44,245 nt of DNA from an uncultured Alphaproteobacteria bacterium. GTDB lineage: Bacteria; Pseudomonadota; Alphaproteobacteria; Sneathiellales; Sneathiellaceae. Positions 9,787-26,095 of this stretch are shown one piece after another. The translations under genes and the position numbers were made by a program. Below the pieces are notes generated by a model. The model was not told where the DNA came from. It saw nothing but the letters and a program-made list of their open reading frames with translations, and did not search any database. Position 1 is the first letter of the stretch; the number at the start of each line of letters is the position of its first letter. The stretch covers positions 1 to 44,245 of the forward strand of contig CAJXWA010000009.1 of assembly GCA_913062525.1 (NCBI GenBank), given 5' to 3'.

Positions 9787-12114
9787 TTATCCTGCGCGGA
9801 CTTGCATGATAAAGCGATTGACTTCTTTATCGAGTTCACTGGCCTCGCTCGCTAGCTTGCCCGCTACAGTTTGAACTTCACTTGCTGAGTTTCCTGTTAA
9901 ATCGGCATTTTGATTAACTGATGTAATATTATTGGAAACTTGCAGGGCACTATCCGCGGCCTGCTGGACGTTTCTACTGATTTCGTTCGTCGCGGTGCCT
10001 TGTTCTTCAACAGAATTAGAAATGGTCGTTGCAATGCTGTTGATCCTGCCAATAGTCTCGCTGATACCACCAATTGCTGTAACGGCTTGACTGGTTTCAT
10101 TTTGAACAGACTTAATTTGGGTAGTGATTTCTTCTGTGGCTTTTGCCGTTTGGGTAGCAAGGTTTTTAACTTCACTTGCGACAACAGCAAACCCTTTACC
10201 CGCATCACCGGCACGGGCTGCTTCAATTGTTGCGTTAAGTGCTAGTAGATTTGTTTGGCCCGCAATGTCACTGATTAAATCAACAACGTCGCCAATTTTC
10301 GCGGCCGCATCGTTCAGGCTTGTGATCATTTTGTTTGACCGTTCTGCCTCTGATACGGCTTCACCCGCGATAGTGGCTGCTTGACCTGCTTGCAAACTGA
10401 TTTCATTGATAGATGCAGAGAGCTCTTCAGTCGCGGCAGCAACAGAATTAATGCTGTTACTAGAAATTTCCGATGCAGAAGCCACTGTTTGCGACAGCGA
10501 TAATGTCTCTCCCGCCGAATTTGTCATTGAGGTTGAAATGCTTGTCATTTCGGTGGTCGCATTTGAAAAACGTTCTACAAGATGTTTTACGCTGCCTTCA
10601 AATTCATCGGCAAGGCGGCCCATTTCTGCGCGTTTAGTATTTTCCGCGTCTTCCGCAAATCGCTCTTTTTCTTCCTGTGCTTTGCGGTCGTTCTCAATGT
10701 TTTCTCGAGTTTGCTGTTCTTTTTCAGTTTCGCGCGTTTTGCGGCGCTCCTCTTCAGTTTCGCTGGCCAACTTTGCAGCCCGCGCTGTATCTCGGAAGCC
10801 TACAATAGCGTGCCCCAGTCTTGCAATTTCGTCTTTTCCTTCTCGATAGATGCTGGAATCTAGATCACCTTCAGAAAGTTTTTGTGCGGATTCGACCATC
10901 ATCATTAATCGTTTCACGATGTTACGGGCTATGTATAACCAACCGATTCCAATTGCAATGAGGACAGCGGCTATAGCTACAATGGCTAAAGCCATTTTCG
11001 ATTGTTCAGCAAGCACCGTGTTTTCTGCATTCACGATTTGCATGGACTCCTCAATGTTGCTGACAAATCCGTTAACCTCGTCTGATAATTGTTCTGCACT
11101 CAGTCGGCTCTCTGAAAGGAACTGATGAGTTGTCGCAATAGTAGTAAGTTCGTTGGTTCGGATCTTGAAAATCAATTCATCACTGGTGCCCTTTGCTCCG
11201 ATGACCAACAGAGTTTCGAAAAGCTCCTCAAGAGGTGCCGATGCTTTTGTATTGCCAATTTTACTAATTTTTGAAACGGGGGTCGCCATGCTGGATATGT
11301 TGGCAAGGAAATCTCCCGAAAGCTTGGCTACCCCTTGAATGTTGTCGGCAAGGGCACCTTCAGCGAGGAGACTAATCAACAAGTATCCTGAACTTTGAAC
11401 ATTGAGAACATTTTCCTGCATGGCGATCAAGTCTCTGTTCGTACCAAAGTACTCATCGATGGAGTATTCCGGCTCTGATCCAGTCAGCGCTGTTTTGACA
11501 GTGTTCTCCATCAACTCCTCTAAGGAGTCATTGTTGTCGAACAATTTTCGCCGAAGGGGAATGAGAAGCGGCCATGCGCCTTTTTTTAAAGTTTCTCTTA
11601 GTGTTGCTAGTTGTTTGAGCCGTTCCCGCCTTAAATCAGTTAAGCGCAAACGTTCTTTAACACTATCATCCAATCCCACGATGAGAGGTTCCAATTCCCG
11701 CAAACTGGCTTCAATATTCACAAGGGCAGGAGCGCCGGGAACAAGTGTATTCAATTCTTTGAGGCGATTTTTGGCCGTTTGTATTGAAGACGTGAGCGTA
11801 TCAATTCTCTCTTGCCGCTCCTCATTTGATTGCGCGGTGCCCAATTGCGGGGCAATGGCAGTAATAAGGGCTGTATCATTTGCCAGCTTTAAGGCTTTGG
11901 TAATCGAAGGTACTTCAGTATCAGTAGTTTTGTTTTGGGCATCAGTCAATGTTCCAAAGGCCATCCAACTAATGACACTGATGACAATCGTTAGTACTGT
12001 AACAATGGAAAACGCTGAAATAAGCCGGGCCCCAATACCAAATTTTGAGTATTGTTTTTCTGTGGTGTCCGATTTTGGCGACTTTTTTATCATGTTTTGT
12101 ATTTTTTTGAACAT
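9787..12114 (-). CDS. Methyl-accepting chemotaxis protein with large helical sensor domain
   Basis: A 775-residue chemoreceptor. It has TM1 (about 28-52), an all-helical periplasmic region of about 320 residues resembling TorS or helical-bimodular sensor domains, and TM2 (about 376-398). A HAMP domain with a charged linker rich in Glu/Arg/Lys (about 398-500) and a C-terminal MCP signalling domain follow. The signalling tip motif is NLLALNATIEAARAGDAGKG (near 622-641), and several Glu/Gln-rich heptads may be methylated. No CheR-docking pentapeptide is seen at the C-terminus (FIMQVRAG). No che genes are in the window, so it is an orphan receptor. The ligand is unknown. Confidence 0.93.
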   Translation of the reverse strand: MFKKIQNMIKKSPKSDTTEKQYSKFGIGARLISAFSIVTVLTIVISVISWMAFGTLTDAQNKTTDTEVPSITKALKLANDTALITAIAPQLGTAQSNEERQERIDTLTSSIQTAKNRLKELNTLVPGAPALVNIEASLRELEPLIVGLDDSVKERLRLTDLRRERLKQLATLRETLKKGAWPLLIPLRRKLFDNNDSLEELMENTVKTALTGSEPEYSIDEYFGTNRDLIAMQENVLNVQSSGYLLISLLAEGALADNIQGVAKLSGDFLANISSMATPVSKISKIGNTKASAPLEELFETLLVIGAKGTSDELIFKIRTNELTTIATTHQFLSESRLSAEQLSDEVNGFVSNIEESMQIVNAENTVLAEQSKMALAIVAIAAVLIAIGIGWLYIARNIVKRLMMMVESAQKLSEGDLDSSIYREGKDEIARLGHAIVGFRDTARAAKLASETEEERRKTRETEKEQQTRENIENDRKAQEEKERFAEDAENTKRAEMGRLADEFEGSVKHLVERFSNATTEMTSISTSMTNSAGETLSLSQTVASASEISSNSINSVAAATEELSASINEISLQAGQAATIAGEAVSEAERSNKMITSLNDAAAKIGDVVDLISDIAGQTNLLALNATIEAARAGDAGKGFAVVASEVKNLATQTAKATEEITTQIKSVQNETSQAVTAIGGISETIGRINSIATTISNSVEEQGTATNEISRNVQQAADSALQVSNNITSVNQNADLTGNSASEVQTVAGKLASEASELDKEVNRFIMQVRAG

Positions 12115-12416
12115 TTGATCTTAGCCGCATGAACGGCTCCCCTAACAACCAGTATTTTGTAAAGACCATATGAGGTCACCGTTAAGAAAACCTTTCATGT
12201 GATCATCATTATGAAAGATTTTAAGGATGGATCGATGGTGGAGCTCCAAGTGACCATCAGTTCAAACGTTTGAACAGGTTTCCGTGCAAGTTGGTGCCGC
12301 TGTCCCGCTTGTAGTTCGTAATCACTTTGGGTATATGTGATCCTTGTTTTATGTGATCACAGTTCGACGGTTGTCGGAAATAACTCAAAAGTGATCTAGA
12401 TAGATGGATACGGCTA
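12115..12416. promoter_or_regulatory. Divergent promoter region with palindromes and ATGTGATC repeats
   Basis: The gap between the divergent chemoreceptor and sulfotransferase genes. It contains a perfect 16-bp palindrome GTTCAAACGTTTGAAC (12260-12275), three copies of ATGTGATC (12197, 12335, 12351), the last within TGTGATCACA (12352-12361), and an inverted pair CTTTCAT / ATGAAAG (12192-12198 and 12211-12217). No ORF with coding character is seen. The palindrome has the size and symmetry of a TetR- or LacI-type operator; its regulator is unknown. Confidence 0.5.
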
Positions 12417-13232
12417 ATGGATTTTTCTTTTCAGTTGCATAGTTTTCGGCGGGACGTCTCAAATTTTTCTATTTTGAAATACAGAAATTTTGAAGGCTAC
12501 CTCGTTACTGGCCAACATTCGGGTACCCATTGGCTTAAATATATGTTGAGTTGCGCTATCGCTCATCAAATTGGTCGGCCGATACCCGCTCATACTGAGA
12601 ATTCAAACAGCAACGATTTTATTGGACATCCAAAACATAAAAGAATGTACCCAGAAGCACCGCGAATTGCGAGCACTCACCAAATTCCACATCGCTTGTA
12701 TGATTCCCGCATTTTTCGAAGTGTGGCATATACACCGCCCACAGCAGTGTTAGTCCGGGATATGCAACACGCGCTGGTTTCTTATTATGAAAAGTGGCGA
12801 TTAAAGCTTGATATGCCTTTTAGCGAGTTCTTGAAAGGCGATAAAACAGGCCATAATCACTGGGCAGATATTTGGTGGCATATTCGCTTTTATAATCGGT
12901 GGGGACGTACTATGGAGCGTTTTCCAGATTCAACATTTTATATGAACTATGAAAACCTAAGAGAACGTTCAGCCGCAGAATTACATCGTATTTTCAAGCA
13001 CTTTAATGTGGAAATAAGTGATGAAAGCATTGAGTTTGCTATTTTTGAAAGTTCACGTGAAAAAATGGCCGCTAAAGCCGGTGTAGAACAAGAAGCTGGA
13101 AATGGTCAGTTCGTTCGATTTGATAAACGAGATCCGCTGGAATGGTATTCTCATGAGGATACCCAATTCTTCAAGGATACAATCAACGAAAATTTGGAAT
13201 ATTTCTACGGGTACGACTATTTGAACCGATAG
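12417..13232 (+). CDS. Sulfotransferase-family protein
   Basis: A 271-residue sulfotransferase-like protein (PF00685 type) that would transfer sulfate from PAPS to an unknown acceptor. The 5'-phosphosulfate-binding loop is GQHSGTHWLKYML (about 33-45), an N-terminal P-loop variant typical of the fold. The 3'-phosphate-binding element is VLVRDMQHALVSYY (about 112-125), with the Arg and Ser residues expected there. No signal peptide is seen. A conventional acceptor cannot be inferred. It converges on the DUF1989 gene with a five-base gap. The ATG at 12417 has only a weak upstream GGAT. A second, unrelated sulfotransferase lies at 26117-26977. Confidence 0.8.
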   Translation: MDFSFQLHSFRRDVSNFSILKYRNFEGYLVTGQHSGTHWLKYMLSCAIAHQIGRPIPAHTENSNSNDFIGHPKHKRMYPEAPRIASTHQIPHRLYDSRIFRSVAYTPPTAVLVRDMQHALVSYYEKWRLKLDMPFSEFLKGDKTGHNHWADIWWHIRFYNRWGRTMERFPDSTFYMNYENLRERSAAELHRIFKHFNVEISDESIEFAIFESSREKMAAKAGVEQEAGNGQFVRFDKRDPLEWYSHEDTQFFKDTINENLEYFYGYDYLNR

Positions 13233-18490: not shown

Positions 18491-19870
18491 TTACCGTTCT
18501 CTAAAGGATTGCGTAAGCGTGGTATGGATTGGTTTCAAGAGATACTCAAGCAAGGTTTTCTTTCCAGAATGAATATCTGCAGTTGCAGTCATGCCAGGCA
18601 AGATTAAATTTCTTTCCGGATTACTGCCAACAAATGACTGCGATAATGCAACCTTACCCTTGTAGAAACTCTCCCCTTGCTCATCTTCAAATGTTGTTGC
18701 TGAAATATGGGTTAAGGAGCCTTCTACTGATCCATAGCGGGAGTAGTTATAGGTCGTGAATTTCACTGTTGCATTTTGTCCAAGCTGAAGAAACCCAATG
18801 TCTTCTGGGCGAATTCGGGTCTCGACAATAAGCTCTTGGTCAATGGGGACGATGGATAGAATTGGGTTCCCAGGCTTAATGACTGTTCCCACGGAATTTA
18901 CATCCATCCCTTGAATGATGCCATCAACAGGAGATACTATGTTTAGTCGGCCAAGCGCTGCGTTCAGCCGCATAAGTTCTTCTTCTATTTTCAAGGTCTC
19001 TGCGTTGGCGGAGGCCATCTCATCGAGGGCTTCTCTTTTCAATTTACTGTTAAGCTCATTGAGCCTTCCGACGGCTTCTTGGATTGCTTGTTTTGCTGAT
19101 TTTTGCTTAAGGATTTGTTCGTCCAATTTGCCTTTTTCTTGCAAAAATTGACGTTGGCTATCTAAAAAATCAAACCGGCTTAACGTGTTATTCTTTAGAA
19201 GGTTTTCTCGAATTTTCATTTGCTCCTTCAGCGGCTCAATTTGGGTTTCCAAAATAAGTATTTGATCTTGAAGCAGAGAAAATTCTGACTGTCTTTGATC
19301 AACTTGAGTTTGCAACACAGACTGTTGGTTCTTTAAATCTAGTTGCTGGATCTCAAGCAGATTTCTTTGCTCATTCAGAAAATCTACAAAACGCGGATCT
19401 GCGACAGATCCGGTGATCTCCCTATTTTGAGCAAACGCCTGCAGCCGTTTTCCTTTTAGATCCCAAATGATTTTTTGGGTCTCAAGCTGTTGAAGTTCGG
19501 CACGAATGTTTGTTGGATCCAATTGGACGAGGATTTGACCTTTTTTAACGATCTCACCTTCAGAGATTGCAATATCGCTAATGGTACCACCGTCAATATG
19601 TTGAATGGTTTGTACAGCACCTGAAGGAATGACCTCCCCTGACGCCACAGAAACTTCATCGATTTCCGCTTTTTGTGCCCAGTAGATAAACGCCAAAAGG
19701 ATGACAAAACTGAACAAGATAGCTGTTCGAAGTAATGAGGACGGCCCCGCTTCTTCAAGCATAATGGATTGGCCAAGGCGGAGGCTTTCGGGCTTCCCTT
19801 TTTCTAGGACTTCGTCGTCTTTAGAAAATTTTTCTTGGTCGATTGCTAGAAATTTAAGTGGTTTTCCCAT
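18491..19870 (-). CDS. HlyD-family type I secretion membrane fusion protein
   Basis: A 459-residue periplasmic adaptor. An N-terminal cytoplasmic segment (about 50 residues) precedes one membrane helix (about 48-65). A biotinyl-lipoyl-like half follows (about 80-120, GGTISDIAISEGEIVKKGQ), then a long alpha-helical hairpin (about 125-310), the second lipoyl half (LGRLNIVSPVDGIIQGM), and a C-terminal beta-barrel domain (LTHISATTFEDEQG). This is the HlyD/LapC architecture that bridges the inner-membrane ABC pump to a TolC-like channel. Its ATG overlaps the upstream ABC gene stop by one base. No outer-membrane channel gene is in the window. Confidence 0.93.
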   Translation of the reverse strand: MGKPLKFLAIDQEKFSKDDEVLEKGKPESLRLGQSIMLEEAGPSSLLRTAILFSFVILLAFIYWAQKAEIDEVSVASGEVIPSGAVQTIQHIDGGTISDIAISEGEIVKKGQILVQLDPTNIRAELQQLETQKIIWDLKGKRLQAFAQNREITGSVADPRFVDFLNEQRNLLEIQQLDLKNQQSVLQTQVDQRQSEFSLLQDQILILETQIEPLKEQMKIRENLLKNNTLSRFDFLDSQRQFLQEKGKLDEQILKQKSAKQAIQEAVGRLNELNSKLKREALDEMASANAETLKIEEELMRLNAALGRLNIVSPVDGIIQGMDVNSVGTVIKPGNPILSIVPIDQELIVETRIRPEDIGFLQLGQNATVKFTTYNYSRYGSVEGSLTHISATTFEDEQGESFYKGKVALSQSFVGSNPERNLILPGMTATADIHSGKKTLLEYLLKPIHTTLTQSFRER

Positions 19871-21999
19871 TATGCACCTTCAAAGATAAGCGGGATTATG
19901 GATGACGCGGGACCAATTGTCTGAACAATGCCCCTGTTCATTAGGACAACACGATCAGCGACACGCATATGACTTGGTCTGTGCGTAATGATGATCACAG
20001 TCGCTTTGCCTCGCATTTTTTCAACCGCATCAAGGAAAGCTTGATCACCGGCTTCATCCAAGGTGTTTCCAGGTTCATCAAAGATCATGATCTTGGCGTT
20101 CGATAAAAATGCCCGCGCCATGTTCAACCGTTGTTGGAAGCCCGCGGGTAATTGCAGCAATGTTTGATCGCCAATACGCGTATCAAGTTTTTCAGGAAGT
20201 TTAGCGATATCTTCCATCAAGTTTGCCCACTCACAGGCTTCTACAATTTGCGCTTCACTGGCAACGCTTTTGGCGAGAAGCAAGTTTTGGCGAATGGTTC
20301 CGTGAAATAGCTCGCTGTTTTGGGGCATGTAACCGATTGATTTTCGCAGTTCAAGCGGGTCAATTTGACGAATATCCACGCCATCGACTGAAATTTTACC
20401 TACCTGTGGTTGGTAAAGGCCGGCCAATAACTTAATAACCGTGGATTTTCCCGAACTGTTAGCGCCTGCAAAAGCGACAATCTCACCCGGTGCGATTTGA
20501 ATATCAAGTCCCATTACAGCGGGATCTTGATCTGCAGAATAACGAAAACTGACCCTTGAGAATGTAATATGTCCCTTGAATTCTTTCAATTTGGAAGACG
20601 CATATGGGTTACTCTCACTGGGCAGCGAAAACAATTGGTTAATGCGGTTAATGCTGATGCCGATCTGGTTTAGTTTAGTTAGCGCCAAGAATACAGCTTG
20701 GGTCGGCGATAAAAGCCGCCAAACTAAGGCCATGGTTGCAACCAGTGCGCCGACAGTCATATCTTCGTTAAAGACACGAGAAATCCCGAACGTAAGTGTC
20801 AAAATGCCGGAACAGATCATGACCACATGGGCAAAGGTTTGCGCAACAGCCCCGATCATGTTGTGTTTTATGCCGGCAAGGGCATTGCCCGCAGAAATGT
20901 CTCTAAAACGCTCCAGCCAAATTTCTTCTGCGCCCAAATGTTTGATCGTTCGCATGTTGTTAAAACATTCGGTGACAAACGTGCCTTTGTTTGCCGAGTG
21001 AGTAAGGTCATTAGCGGTGCGCTTTTGAATAATTGGCAAGATGACCAACGCGCTAATGACATATAGAACCAGCATGGTTATGGGGATTAGAACCAAGGGA
21101 CCGCCGATTAGACCAACAGCAATCAAAAAGACAAATACAAATGGCATTTCGAGAAGAGCCATTGCCATGGGCCCAATGAAAAAATCCCGGATCATGTCAA
21201 ACTCGCGGAAGCGGGCGATCTTCGATCCCAGAGAACTTCGTTCTGTTTGGGAAACAGGTAATGATAGGATTTTCTGCAGCGCCGTTGTGCCGATTATATA
21301 GTCTAGCCGAGCACCAATATGAGATAGCATCTTGCCACGAATTAGGCGAAGAACAATGTCACTGGCGAGCGCAATTCCAACACCAATAAGAAGGTACTTT
21401 AGGGTCTCCGTAGAGCCTGAACCAATGACCATGTCATACACGGCCATGATAAACAAAGGGGTTGCGAGTGCCAAAATATTAAGCAGGAACGTTATGATCA
21501 AAATTTGTCTGGTCAGAGGCGAAAAGCGATCAAATACAGCGCGAAACCAGTTCGTGCTGGAATTCCACTGACCGATTTGTTCTTTGGGGGTCGGATGAAA
21601 AAAGAAGGCTTCGCCTTTTTCCTTCAAGACAGATTTTTCATCAATTACGCTGTAATCTTGTGTTCTCGCATCAAAAGCAAAAATGCCACCCTTTTTCTCA
21701 GAAATGAGAATTTTAACAGACCCTTGTTCAGGATCGAACAGGCAGGGAAATAAGCGAGGGTCGATAGACTTCAACGTCGTTGTTTTTGCCTGACTCTCAT
21801 AATGTAAATTAGCCAGAGCACCCCGTAGATCCAGAAGATCCATAGTTTCTTTGAAATGAGGCATGGCTTCGATGACTTGAGAGGAGTCTCCTCTCCAGCC
21901 AAGGGCACTTAATAGGGGTGAAAGACACGCTGCATACTGCGTACGCCGTCCCCAATTGTTTTGCTCCGGGTTATCCGGTTCTGCTGCTAAGAACGCCAT
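19870..21999 (-). CDS. Type I secretion ABC transporter with N-terminal C39-like domain
   Basis: A 709-residue half-transporter. Residues 1-135 resemble the C39-like domain of LapB/LssB-type secretion ATPases; a Cys25 is present but I cannot identify a catalytic triad. The transmembrane domain spans about 160-455 and the nucleotide-binding domain about 475-709. Walker A is GANSSGKST (512-520), the Q-loop Gln is Gln560, Walker B is IFDEP (Asp641, Glu642) and the H-loop is His673 (ITHRPS). The signature is degraded to LPAGF (617-621). It follows the other ABC gene by one base and overlaps the HlyD gene by one base. It is best read as one half of a heterodimer with the 22001-23755 product. Confidence 0.9.
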   Translation of the reverse strand: MAFLAAEPDNPEQNNWGRRTQYAACLSPLLSALGWRGDSSQVIEAMPHFKETMDLLDLRGALANLHYESQAKTTTLKSIDPRLFPCLFDPEQGSVKILISEKKGGIFAFDARTQDYSVIDEKSVLKEKGEAFFFHPTPKEQIGQWNSSTNWFRAVFDRFSPLTRQILIITFLLNILALATPLFIMAVYDMVIGSGSTETLKYLLIGVGIALASDIVLRLIRGKMLSHIGARLDYIIGTTALQKILSLPVSQTERSSLGSKIARFREFDMIRDFFIGPMAMALLEMPFVFVFLIAVGLIGGPLVLIPITMLVLYVISALVILPIIQKRTANDLTHSANKGTFVTECFNNMRTIKHLGAEEIWLERFRDISAGNALAGIKHNMIGAVAQTFAHVVMICSGILTLTFGISRVFNEDMTVGALVATMALVWRLLSPTQAVFLALTKLNQIGISINRINQLFSLPSESNPYASSKLKEFKGHITFSRVSFRYSADQDPAVMGLDIQIAPGEIVAFAGANSSGKSTVIKLLAGLYQPQVGKISVDGVDIRQIDPLELRKSIGYMPQNSELFHGTIRQNLLLAKSVASEAQIVEACEWANLMEDIAKLPEKLDTRIGDQTLLQLPAGFQQRLNMARAFLSNAKIMIFDEPGNTLDEAGDQAFLDAVEKMRGKATVIIITHRPSHMRVADRVVLMNRGIVQTIGPASSIIPLIFEGA

Positions 22000-22000
22000 T

Positions 22001-23755
22001 TTATACCGTTTTCTTTTTAATTGGGAGTTGTGCTACTGGGCGTTTGAACTGCACCAAATCTTCGACAGGGGTTTGGATCAAGTTTTTCGCGTTGATCCTA
22101 AAGCCAATATCAGCGATTTTGAGAAGCGATGGACGGAGGCTAATAAGAATTATCGTGCTCTGGCCTTTTAGACGGAGCAAAGTATTTTTTAAAATTTCAT
22201 CACCGGCGGCATCCAATGACGTATTTGCCTCATCAAACAGGATGACATCCGGTTTGCCTACAAGTGCCCGAGCGATGGCAATTCGTTGGCGAATACCGCC
22301 AGGTAGGCTATCTGCAGCTCCATCGCCGATCATCGTATCGTACCCTAATGGCAGACGTTTAATAAAGTTATCTAACCCGAGTAGTTGCGATTGCTTTATC
22401 GCCTCATCAATAAAACTACCTTTTCTAAAGGTCGTTAGGTTTTCCATCACAGTTCCGTGGAAAATAGCACCGTTTTGAGGGAGGTAAGCGATTTTGCTAT
22501 GCAATTCATCGCGGGAAATAGATCTGATGTCTTTACCGTTCAGAAGAATTCTACCTGAAGTCGCGGGTAAAAGCCCTAAGGCAAGCCACAGAAGTGTTGA
22601 TTTTCCACTACTGTTAGCACCGACAACTGCAGTTGTCGAACCTGTGTTAAATGTCGCTGATACATTTTCAAATAAAGGGCTCTCGTCTTCATTATACGAA
22701 AAAGTTACATTTTCAAAGGTGAGGCTAGTTCCGGTTTTGTCGTTGGCTTGAGTATCCTGGTACGACACGGCAATCGGTGCCTCGGCCTGGGGAAGTTGCA
22801 GCAGTGTATTGACCCGGATTTTGGCTAGTTTGACATTTTGATAGTGCGTCCAGACGCCCATTGCTCTTAGCAGGGGTTGCAAGGCTCGTCCTGATAACAG
22901 CGTGCAGGCTGCTAAGCCACCAATTGTTAGCGCGCCATCAATGACCAAAAGGGACCCAAACGCGGCAACACTGACAAGTGTGATTTGGGAAAATATGGCA
23001 CCTAACCCTTGTGCTATATTATTTTGAAAGGTGATTTTCTGTAAGATGCCAGCGGTGGTTTCTTGAAGCCGTTCATAGCGTCTGATCATTTGAGCCTCTA
23101 GCGCCAGCCCTTTCACAGTGTGTATCCCGGTTAGGACTTCAATTAAGAAATTGTATCGCCGATCCTCCCATGTTGACCTTTCGCTCAATGATTTTCTCAA
23201 ACTTTTTCCCACCACTAAGGTGACTAGGCTGAAAATCACAAGAAGAACCAATGGGGCGATAACAAGAGTTCCGCCGATGTATCCAACCATTCCGATAAAT
23301 ATAACAGCAAAGGGAAGGTCAACAAAAACCAGGAGGTTGCTACCTGACATAAACTCTCTAAGGCTGTCAATTGCGTTAAAACGGTGGAGGTAGACACCAG
23401 CAGCTTCGCTTTCAAAACGGGCGATATTTGTCCCCAGTGTACGACCCAGAGCGCGGCAACCGGTAATGTGTTCAAACTGTGCGCTGGAAAATGCGGTGAT
23501 ATAGGCACGAGCTAATCTAAAGAAAGCCTCCAACAATAAGGCTGCGCCAACACCCAAGATCAACAGAACAAGTGTCTCCGTTGCGTTGTTAGGGATAATT
23601 CTATCGTAGACTTGTAAAATCATGACTGGAAGCGCAAGCGCAAGCAGATTTAACGCCGTAGAGGCGACAATGATATCTACACTGGTGTTCCCAATGGTCG
23701 GCATTTTTGATTGCCGTAGCATGGGTTTGTCATCGTCTAATGTTGTTTTTCTCAA
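22001..23755 (-). CDS. Second ABC half-transporter of the secretion operon, no C39-like domain
   Basis: A 584-residue half-transporter with transmembrane domain (about 25-310) and nucleotide-binding domain (about 345-570), but no N-terminal C39-like extension. Walker A is GANSSGKST (379-387), Gln427 is the Q-loop, the signature is LPGGI (484-488) and Walker B is LFDEA with Asp508 and Glu509. The H-loop histidine is replaced by Leu540 (ISLRPS against ITHRPS in the partner). Its start is a TTG with AGGAAA upstream; no ATG before residue 12 is available. It is the first gene of the ABC-ABC-HlyD operon. PrtD-like exporters share this short form, but normally occur singly. Confidence 0.9.
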   Translation of the reverse strand: MRKTTLDDDKPMLRQSKMPTIGNTSVDIIVASTALNLLALALPVMILQVYDRIIPNNATETLVLLILGVGAALLLEAFFRLARAYITAFSSAQFEHITGCRALGRTLGTNIARFESEAAGVYLHRFNAIDSLREFMSGSNLLVFVDLPFAVIFIGMVGYIGGTLVIAPLVLLVIFSLVTLVVGKSLRKSLSERSTWEDRRYNFLIEVLTGIHTVKGLALEAQMIRRYERLQETTAGILQKITFQNNIAQGLGAIFSQITLVSVAAFGSLLVIDGALTIGGLAACTLLSGRALQPLLRAMGVWTHYQNVKLAKIRVNTLLQLPQAEAPIAVSYQDTQANDKTGTSLTFENVTFSYNEDESPLFENVSATFNTGSTTAVVGANSSGKSTLLWLALGLLPATSGRILLNGKDIRSISRDELHSKIAYLPQNGAIFHGTVMENLTTFRKGSFIDEAIKQSQLLGLDNFIKRLPLGYDTMIGDGAADSLPGGIRQRIAIARALVGKPDVILFDEANTSLDAAGDEILKNTLLRLKGQSTIILISLRPSLLKIADIGFRINAKNLIQTPVEDLVQFKRPVAQLPIKKKTV

Positions 23756-24166
23756 ACTATCGTTTTCCTGGTGAAAAATATCGGCTGTTAGAACAAGTTA
23801 AGAGCCGGAATACACTTGGTTGTTAACTATAATTGGCTGTAAAGATTTAATTTTGGTAAAATTACGTATAAAAAATCGCGGAAATAGAATTAGGCAATTA
23901 GTTCTAGGCCATTGTTATATTTGTTTAATCTCTGGGTCTGATGGTAGTTCTCGAAATGAAAACAGTCATTTGTAAATTATTATTTTCGTAAATTATTTGT
24001 TGAGAAATAAATGATATGTTTTCAACTCTTTGTTTTTGTGCGTAAATTGATCTCGTTAATAACTCTGTGACGGTAAGTAAAAAACGCATTCTTTCGAGTA
24101 TTTTACAAATACTCGGCGTTGTTTGATGTATTCGTGTTCTTTATGAGGTTTTGGCTTCTGACCGGT
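23756..24166. promoter_or_regulatory. A/T-rich divergent intergenic region with repeats
   Basis: About 410 bases between the divergent secretion operon and a sensor kinase. GTAAATTATT occurs at 23972-23981 and 23988-23997 (16-base period), with a variant GTAAATTGAT at 24042-24051. A 21-bp dyad lies at 24095-24115. No convincing gene is seen; the upstream extension of the kinase frame from a TTG at 24119 is probably not translated. Promoters for both directions are expected here. Confidence 0.5.
24095..24115. promoter_or_regulatory. 21-bp perfect dyad before the PAS kinase
   Basis: CGAGTATTT and AAATACTCG are perfect 9-bp arms separated by TAC. The site is 51 bases upstream of the ATG at 24167. 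It could be a dimer operator or an RNA hairpin in the kinase leader; there is no T-tract after it. Confidence 0.4.
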
Positions 24167-26095
24167 ATGAATAAAAACGTAAACTTGGATAGTATTCTAC
24201 AGGAGGCCCTGGAAAAAGGGTCAAAAGCGTTTGTTATTTATGACAAACGGGGTGTTTTGGTGAGCTGTAACCAAAAATTCAGAGACTTATACGGATACAC
24301 CAAAGCGCAAGCCTCGCCAGGTACCCATGTTACGGATTTGATCACAATTGATACAGAAAATGGAAACCTGATACCAGGATTTGATAATGGCCGTGCAGAT
24401 GATTTTTTGAGCGGTCGATTTGAACTCCAGCAAGATCATAAGCGGGAATTTGAATTTTATTTGAATGACGGCCGGTGCATCGCGGTCAGCGAACGCTCAA
24501 CGGCTGCGGGCGGGAGCGTCTGTATCCAAAGAAATGTGAGTGAGCGCCAAAAACTCAAAACTAAATTACAACAAAACGAAGGACTATTCCGGGCTGCGTT
24601 TGACGCGGATTCCAATATATGCTCCCTTTCAGTCCTTAAAACAGGTGCTTTGATTGATGTAAATGCTGTTTGGTGCGAAACACTTGGTTTTTCCAGAAAG
24701 GAAGCCATTGGAAAAACAGCGATGGAGTTACATATTTGGAAAAGCCAACAATACCGGGATTATCTTGTCGAGCAGATCGGTAAGACACCGCGAACAAGAG
24801 AACTTCGTGCAGAGATTGTAACGCGGTCTGGGGATGTGAGAACTCTGTCTCTCAATGCTGAAGTCATCCACGCAAACGGCATTGAATGTATGTATTTCTC
24901 TGCAAAGGATATTACGGAAGAACTTGAAGTAACGAAGGCTCTGGAAGAAAGTGAACGACGGTTGGTCGACTTTGCCAGAGCCAGTAATGATTGGTATTGG
25001 GAAACTGATGAAGACCATCGGTTTACATTTATTTCTCCCGTTGTTGAGCGATCAACGGGTATTCCTGCCGCAGATCACATTGGTTTTTTGCTGGAGGATA
25101 TAACAGGTTCAGGTGCGAGAAATCAGAAAGCGTTCCGGTTTTTTTCAGATATGATGGCGGAGCATAAATCTTTCCGTGATCTTGTTTTATATCGGTTCCG
25201 AAAAGATACAGGCCAGAAGATATGGCTAAGGACAAGCGGGCTGCCAAGTTTCAGAGACGATGGGAAATTTCTTGGTTATCGGGGAAGTTGCACGGATATT
25301 ACAGACCAAGTCGTTTTGGAAGAAAAACTTCTACAATCTCAAAAGATGGAAGCTGTTGGCCAACTAACTGGCGGTGTAGCCCATGACTTCAATAACTTAC
25401 TTGCAGTCATTCAAGGTAATGCGGAAATGGTCAAAGAAGCCGTTGAAACAAAATTGCCAGAATTGGTCCATTACCTGGAAGCAATCATGCGCGCTTCTGA
25501 TCGCGGTGCAGAACTGACGCAAAGTATGCTGGCTTTCTCAAGAAAACAGGATTTAGTACCCAGTATATTCAGACTTGATCAGCATATCGAAAAAATGATC
25601 AAGCTTGTGAAGCGCACCATAGGTGACGGCATCACAGTAAATACCGAATTTGACAAGGATTTATGGCACTGTAGAGCGGATCCAGCAAAACTTGAAAGTG
25701 CATTGCTTAATCTATGTATTAACGCACGGGACTCTATGTCAGATCAAGGCATTCTGACCATCGAAATTCGCAATCTTGAAGTTGATGAAAGTTATGCGGC
25801 CATGGAGCGCGATGTGATCCCCGGCTCATATGTTTCCCTGATTGTTAGCGATACGGGCTGCGGTATTTCTTCTGAAAAATTACCTCACATTGTAGAGCCC
25901 TTTTACACCACGAAAGAAGTGGGTAAGGGGACCGGCCTTGGCCTTAGCATGGTTTACGGGTTTGCTAGGCAATCCAATGGTCATCTTTCAATTTATTCTG
26001 AAGTGGATATTGGCACAACGGTACGCCTTTTGTTACCAGCGGCAAATGTTGATGAGTTATCTTCAATTTCCGAAAAGACAGATCATAAAAATTGA
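24167..26095 (+). CDS. Soluble PAS-domain sensor histidine kinase (orphan)
   Basis: A 642-residue cytoplasmic kinase with three predicted PAS domains (about 8-130, 137-255, 260-385), each ending in a typical strand such as SAKDITEEL or CTDITDQV. The kinase core has phospho-acceptor His406 (TGGVAHDFNNLLAV), N-box NLCINARDSM, DTGCGI, and GTGLGLSMVYGF. There is no receiver domain, membrane helix or cognate regulator next to it. The start at ATG 24167 (MNKNVNLDSI) is chosen over TTG 24119 and ATG 24143 because the first PAS begins just after it; the ribosome-binding site is weak. It is divergent from the secretion operon, so control of that operon is possible but unproven. Confidence 0.9.
   Translation: MNKNVNLDSILQEALEKGSKAFVIYDKRGVLVSCNQKFRDLYGYTKAQASPGTHVTDLITIDTENGNLIPGFDNGRADDFLSGRFELQQDHKREFEFYLNDGRCIAVSERSTAAGGSVCIQRNVSERQKLKTKLQQNEGLFRAAFDADSNICSLSVLKTGALIDVNAVWCETLGFSRKEAIGKTAMELHIWKSQQYRDYLVEQIGKTPRTRELRAEIVTRSGDVRTLSLNAEVIHANGIECMYFSAKDITEELEVTKALEESERRLVDFARASNDWYWETDEDHRFTFISPVVERSTGIPAADHIGFLLEDITGSGARNQKAFRFFSDMMAEHKSFRDLVLYRFRKDTGQKIWLRTSGLPSFRDDGKFLGYRGSCTDITDQVVLEEKLLQSQKMEAVGQLTGGVAHDFNNLLAVIQGNAEMVKEAVETKLPELVHYLEAIMRASDRGAELTQSMLAFSRKQDLVPSIFRLDQHIEKMIKLVKRTIGDGITVNTEFDKDLWHCRADPAKLESALLNLCINARDSMSDQGILTIEIRNLEVDESYAAMERDVIPGSYVSLIVSDTGCGISSEKLPHIVEPFYTTKEVGKGTGLGLSMVYGFARQSNGHLSIYSEVDIGTTVRLLLPAANVDELSSISEKTDHKN

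What the first reader, a model, noticed from the sequence alone, without database searches (positions are those of the whole stretch)
19870..23755. Two unequal ABC half-transporters whose motif defects complement as a heterodimeric type I secretion pump
In the 584-residue subunit the H-loop histidine is Leu540 while its signature LPGGI stays close to LSGGQ. In the 709-residue subunit the H-loop His673 is intact but the signature is LPAGF, missing the first Gly. ABC dimers pair one subunit's Walker A/H-loop with the other's signature, so a heterodimer would have one degenerate site (Leu540 plus LPAGF) and one near-canonical site (His673 plus LPGGI). That is the usual layout of heterodimeric ABC exporters, but type I secretion ABC proteins are normally homodimers. 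The unusual GANSSGKST Walker A in both suggests duplication and divergence, and the genes are one base apart in an operon with a single HlyD adaptor.
Basis: partly seen in the sequence, partly recalled or inferred. Interest (0 to 1): 0.68.

Follow-up and report, generated by a model that had tools for sequence, protein, structure and literature searches.

The report
Two-part protein pump with one weak engine
A marine bacterium encodes a protein-export pump built from two different ATP-driven halves that only together make one good engine site; the same paired arrangement recurs across many alphaproteobacteria, next to or alongside giant adhesin-like proteins that it probably exports.

Summary
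In detail: residues, coordinates and one-base spacing all check. The operon is A (584 aa, no CLD), B (709 aa, HlyB-like with a C39-like domain) and one HlyD adaptor, in a Sneathiella-like genome. B follows A in 85 of 86 related loci with room, and HlyD follows B in 78 of 79. The His-to-Leu change does not track LPAGF: LPAGF/LPTGF is constant in the genus, Leu is limited to four species, and other lineages carry Tyr, Pro, Ala, Ser, Gln or Phe. Yet all the decay falls in one composite site. A loses its H-loop His (at least 10 changes), sometimes its catalytic Glu or Walker A Lys, but keeps Gly4 of its signature. B keeps Lys, Glu and His (one Gln) but loses its signature. Control type I ABC proteins from the same class keep LSGGQ and His. 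This strongly supports an obligate heterodimer with one degenerate site. Probable cargo: cadherin/RTX proteins with a shared C-terminus, encoded beside the operon in nine congeners, elsewhere in the window's genome, present in 11 of 12 operon-positive and 0 of 12 operon-negative congeners (about two independent changes). Precedent: MARTX RtxB/RtxE. New variant of a known kind. Assembly is inferred, not shown.

The parts
22001..23755 (-). Subunit A: ABC half-transporter, 584 aa, six-helix TMD plus NBD, no C39-like domain
   Evidence: (PF00664, PF00005)
19870..21999 (-). Subunit B: ABC half-transporter, 709 aa, N-terminal C39-like domain plus TMD plus NBD; best fold match HlyB over residues 20-709
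18491..19870 (-). HlyD-family type I secretion periplasmic adaptor, 459 aa
   Evidence: TIGR01843 380 bits, cut-off 208.65
22595..22621 (-). A Walker A GANSSGKST (379-387)
22292..22306 (-). A signature LPGGI (484-488), keeps Gly4; half of the presumed catalytic site
22136..22138 (-). A H-loop position Leu540 (His lost)
20440..20466 (-). B Walker A GANSSGKST (512-520)
20137..20151 (-). B signature LPAGF (617-621), degenerate
19981..19983 (-). B H-loop His673, intact
21580..21942 (-). B N-terminal C39-like domain (about residues 20-140); invariant Cys25 and Cys86, no His at the aligned stretch

Best explanation
The operon encodes an asymmetric type I secretion system whose inner-membrane motor is an obligate A-B heterodimer. 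Site 2 (B's Walker A, Glu642 and His673 facing A's LPGGI) does the ATP hydrolysis. Site 1 (A's Walker A, Glu509 and Leu540 facing B's LPAGF) is degenerate and probably holds ATP to keep the NBDs engaged. Only B carries the C39-like domain, so each dimer would have one cargo-docking domain. With HlyD and a TolC-type channel encoded elsewhere, it exports large calcium-binding cadherin/RTX proteins that share a conserved C-terminal segment, likely the secretion signal. Shown here: the genes, the motif asymmetry, the conserved A-B-HlyD linkage, and the cargo's adjacency and co-occurrence. Inferred: heterodimer assembly, which site hydrolyses, the cargo assignment and the export itself.
For: B directly follows A in 85/86 loci with room and HlyD follows B in 78/79; the commonest overlap is 4 bases at both junctions. 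Site 1 decays on both sides: A's H-loop is non-His in 41/89, A's catalytic Glu is Ala or Asn in 3, A's Walker A Lys is Arg in 2, and B's signature is degenerate nearly everywhere (LPTSF, FSASF, LPAGF). Site 2 is kept: B Lys 81/81, Glu 79/79, His 78/79, and A's signature Gly4 in 78/79 of the reduced set. On a tree of 79 loci A's H-loop changes at least 10 times and B's once (two-sided binomial p 0.012). In the single B His-to-Gln locus (L095) A keeps His. Control T1SS ABC proteins keep LSGGQ and His. The literature gives the same logic: every human degenerate site has signature changes, H-loop deviations often accompany loss of the Walker B Glu, and losing the NBS1 H-loop His in ABCC1 is tolerated while losing it in NBS2 is not (PMC7756269). 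Cargo: adjacent in nine congeners and many other genera; 11/12 operon-positive against 0/12 operon-negative congeners; two copies in the window's own genome on another contig. HlyD passes TIGR01843; a TolC-family protein is encoded elsewhere.
Against: No physical or biochemical evidence of assembly. The presumed good site uses an off-consensus signature (LPGGI here, LPRGI or LPRGV elsewhere), so no LSGGQ exists anywhere in the transporter. A keeps the Walker A Lys and catalytic Glu in most lineages, and about half of A proteins keep His, so site 1 need not be inactive everywhere. The cargo is not adjacent in the window, and the co-occurrence rests on only about two independent changes on an rpoB tree, so the Fisher p of 1e-5 overstates it. 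No complex could be modelled with the tools (single chains only).
Confidence: 0.84

Rival explanations
1. Two separate homodimeric exporters, A2 and B2, share one HlyD adaptor and handle different cargoes.
For: Each protein has a complete TMD and NBD fold and keeps Walker A and the catalytic Glu in the window.
Against: In the window A2 would have no H-loop His at either site and B2 would have a degenerate signature at both; the decay is complementary across lineages; one adaptor and near-fixed A-B adjacency.
Confidence: 0.07
2. B alone is the exporter (homodimer) and A is an accessory or regulatory half-transporter that binds ATP but does not form the pore.
For: B carries the C39-like domain and the intact Lys/Glu/His; A is the faster-evolving and more decayed partner.
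Against: A B homodimer would have two degenerate signatures; A retains the full TMD and its signature Gly4 almost everywhere.
Confidence: 0.06
3. A is on the way to becoming a pseudogene and its H-loop change is neutral decay without a heterodimer.
For: H-loop residue varies widely (Y, P, A, L, Q, S, F).
Against: A is 61-84% identical across the genus, intact and linked to B wherever found; its signature Gly4 and most Walker residues are conserved.
Confidence: 0.02

Closest known systems
MARTX four-component type I secretion system RtxB/RtxD/RtxE of Vibrio (Boardman and Satchell 2004, as described in PMC3034196 and PMC4316617)
   Same: Two related ABC proteins plus one HlyD-type adaptor, TolC supplied from elsewhere, both ABC proteins needed, heterodimer suggested, very large RTX-type cargo.
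   Different: Gene order ABC-HlyD-ABC (rtxBDE) rather than ABC-ABC-HlyD; toxin cargo rather than cadherin/RTX adhesin-like proteins. Kinship to RtxB/RtxE was not tested here; both window proteins score higher with the LssB model than with the HlyB model.
Heterodimeric type I ABC exporters with a degenerate site (TM287/288, TmrAB, BmrCD, TAP)
   Same: Decay concentrated in one composite site, one partner supplying the intact catalytic half; same fold.
   Different: Those are drug or peptide exporters without HlyD/TolC partners; their consensus site has LSGGQ (own knowledge) whereas here even the better signature is LPxG(I/V).
HlyB/HlyD haemolysin system (PDB 8dck)
   Same: B matches HlyB over its whole length including the C39-like domain (Z 31.2, 680 aligned, rmsd 6.2), A matches the HlyB core (Z 27.1, 550 aligned, rmsd 4.7).
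   Different: HlyB is a single gene product; HlyB-family proteins here keep LSGGQ and His. In the window two gene products share the roles.
LssB/LapB-type T1SS ABC proteins (TIGR03375)
   Same: Best-scoring NCBIfam model for both A and B (410 and 505 bits).
   Different: Both fall below its cut-off of 693; A lacks the C39-like domain; signatures are not LSGGQ.

Membership tests
Type I secretion system | ABC protein of the T1SS class | tested here: inconclusive
   Best NCBIfam models for A and B are LssB, HlyB and PrtD, but both score below every cut-off.
Type I secretion system | HlyD-family adaptor in the operon | tested here: met
   TIGR01843 380 bits against cut-off 208.65.
Type I secretion system | TolC-type outer-membrane channel | tested here: met
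   TIGR01844 above cut-off at G000:C188, not in this operon; that it serves this operon is assumed.
Type I secretion system | RTX-type cargo with C-terminal signal | tested here: met
   RTX/cadherin proteins with a shared C-terminus, adjacent in congeners, co-occurring, two in own genome; secretion itself not tested.
Heterodimeric ABC exporter with degenerate site | Deviations of both subunits fall in one composite site | tested here: met
Heterodimeric ABC exporter with degenerate site | The other site is consensus, with LSGGQ | tested here: not met
   A signature is LPxG(I/V); no LSGGQ in either subunit. Described as working like this class, not as a textbook member.
Heterodimeric ABC exporter with degenerate site | Physical A-B assembly | not testable with these tools
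   Only single chains can be modelled.
MARTX RtxB/RtxE system | Orthology of the two ABC proteins to RtxB and RtxE | not tested
   MARTX loci of pathogens were not fetched.
MARTX RtxB/RtxE system | Gene order rtxB-rtxD-rtxE | tested here: not met
   A-B-HlyD order in 78/79 loci.
LssB (TIGR03375) | Score above curated cut-off | tested here: not met
   410 and 505 bits against 693.1.

The most novel reading that the evidence does not exclude
A distinct, widespread class of type I secretion system in which asymmetry is written into the genes: an obligate ABC heterodimer with one C39-like domain per dimer, one degenerate ATP site, and a catalytic site that works without any LSGGQ signature, dedicated to giant cadherin/RTX proteins.
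Probability: 0.6. Interest if true: 0.68.

Novelty: new variant of a known kind. Interest (0 to 1): 0.56.

Why it matters
Type I exporters are usually treated as homodimers, which makes it hard to ask which half does what during transport of a giant unfolded protein. Here the two halves are separate genes, so the role of each ATP site and of the single C39-like domain can be tested by mutating one gene at a time, in marine bacteria. About ten H-loop changes in one subunit are a natural mutational record of what a degenerate site can lose.

Tried and rejected
Recent duplication from the shared Walker A: rejected, since the 9-mer is not shared in most relatives and A and B are old separate clades; sisterhood is weak and model-dependent. 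Fisher p of 1e-5 for operon-cargo co-occurrence: kept only as description because of shared ancestry. Modelling of the complex was not possible. The outgroup row in the rpoB tree was a wrong reading frame and was ignored. Paper searches found no report of this motif asymmetry in a type I secretion system, but the library holds open-access papers only.

Full report
Observation. A is 22001-23755 on the minus strand, B is 19870-21999, and an HlyD-type adaptor follows at 18491-19870. A has Walker A GANSSGKST, signature LPGGI, Glu509 and Leu540; B has GANSSGKST, LPAGF, Glu642 and His673.

Setting. The window is contig C9 of a 3.5-Mb, 247-contig, 85% complete genome; its nearest relatives are Sneathiella. 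Of the 24 genomes of that genus compared (the window's own and 23 congeners), 12 have the operon, the window's included. A scan of species genomes found 308 relatives of A and kept 80, in Sneathiella, Thalassospira, Magnetospirillum, Terasakiella, Emcibacter, Kordiimonas, Kiloniellales and Magnetococcales records. In 89 distinct A loci, B comes next in 85 of 86 with room and HlyD after B in 78 of 79; the exceptions are L106, which has only 1 kb downstream of A, and L053.

Motif survey. A: H-loop H 48, Y 11, P 10, A 5, L 4, Q 4, S 4, F 3; catalytic E 86, A 2, N 1; Walker A Lys 87, Arg 2; signature LPRGI/V, LPGGI, MPRGI, IPTGI and similar. B: H-loop H 78, Q 1; E 79/79; Lys 81/81; signature LPTSF, FSASF, LPAGF, LPSSF, MPTSL and similar. 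An ATP site is made of one subunit's Walker A/B and H-loop plus the other's signature (PMC7756269), so the A losses and the B losses meet in the same site. On a tree of 79 loci A's H-loop state changes at least 10 times and B's once; B's signature Gly4 changes at least 5 times and A's once. L132 is the extreme case: A has lost Lys and His, and B's signature is ISDSL, while B's own Lys, Glu and His are intact. L054 and L056 have A Glu-to-Ala with His-to-Gln. L095 is the one locus where B has Gln, and there A has His.

Control. Thirty-nine LssB, HlyB and PrtD family proteins from the same class keep LSGGQ or close to it, and 36 keep the His (anchors).

Within the genus, LPAGF/LPTGF is constant while Leu540 appears in the window, L042, L043 and L044 only. 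The changes therefore vary independently. That does not count against a heterodimer, because a site already weakened by the partner's signature can lose its His at little extra cost; ABCC1 tolerates exactly this in its degenerate site and not in the other (PMC7756269).

Structure. The B model (mean pLDDT 79.8) matches HlyB 8dck chain A over residues 20-709 (Z 31.2, rmsd 6.2, 680 aligned), so its N-terminus is a C39-like domain; the A model (79.8) starts directly at the TMD and best matches 8dck chain B and other exporters (Z about 27). In that HlyB structure chain A is resolved from residue 8 and chain B only from 137, which suggests, as inference, that one C39-like domain per dimer is the ordered one; the AB pair would fix this in its genes. 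B keeps an invariant Cys25 aligned with a Cys found in many LssB/HlyB relatives but no aligned His, so proteolysis is unlikely.

Cargo. A family of large proteins with an acidic N-terminus, cadherin-like repeats, DUF4114 and RTX repeats and a conserved C-terminus (GGDGGGWSDTI...LTFDGVEKIEG) lies divergent to the operon in nine congeners and in Emcibacter and Kordiimonas records, and directly downstream of HlyD in Thalassospira. In the window its place is taken by a PAS histidine kinase (24119-26095). Searching with the last 93 residues found it in 11 of 12 operon-positive congeners, the window's genome included (two tandem copies on C25, L158), and in none of 12 operon-negative ones apart from one weak partial match. 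The twelfth positive genome is 56% complete. On an rpoB tree the operon's presence changes at least twice; G022, placed among operon-negative species, has both operon and cargo. A TolC-family channel is encoded elsewhere.

Ancestry. A and B are each single clades with full support in the mixture-model tree, which joins them with 88% support (not starred); FastTree did not join them. If they are duplicates, the duplication predates these lineages.

Judgement. Known parts in a known kind of arrangement, with a clear new variant: a T1SS with a gene-encoded asymmetric motor. The assembly, the division of labour between sites, and the export of the named cargo are inferences that simple experiments in marine laboratory strains could settle.

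Noticed in passing
L158:8864-11950 and 12095-13149 (G000:C25): Two tandem cadherin/RTX proteins in the window's own genome with the same C-terminus as the operon-linked cargo of relatives; the second is cut by the contig end.
   Followed up: yes
L132, L138: A subunits in which the Walker A Lys is replaced by Arg, the strongest decay of A's own site seen.
   Followed up: partly
L095: The only locus where B's H-loop is Gln; A keeps His there and both signatures are off-consensus (LPTGL, LPRGL), a possible reversal of roles.
   Followed up: no
L070-L072, L076, L080-L082, L085, L086: B open frames of 840-1216 aa in several Rhodospirillales MAGs; may be N-terminal extensions or only upstream open frame.
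   Followed up: no
L075, L077, L079, L087: A frames of 660-750 aa in Terasakiella and Methylocystaceae-labelled records, longer than the usual 570-600 aa; may be a C-terminal extension.
   Followed up: no
window 24119-26095: PAS-containing histidine kinase occupies the place where most congeners carry the divergent cargo gene.
   Followed up: partly
L223/L226 (G008:C4:3748-7799): rpoB of this genome is found as two adjacent pieces, probably a sequencing or assembly error.
   Followed up: no
G000:C188 (L058): A separate, canonical LssB-type T1SS ABC protein with a TolC-family gene close by on the same contig in the same genome.
   Followed up: partly
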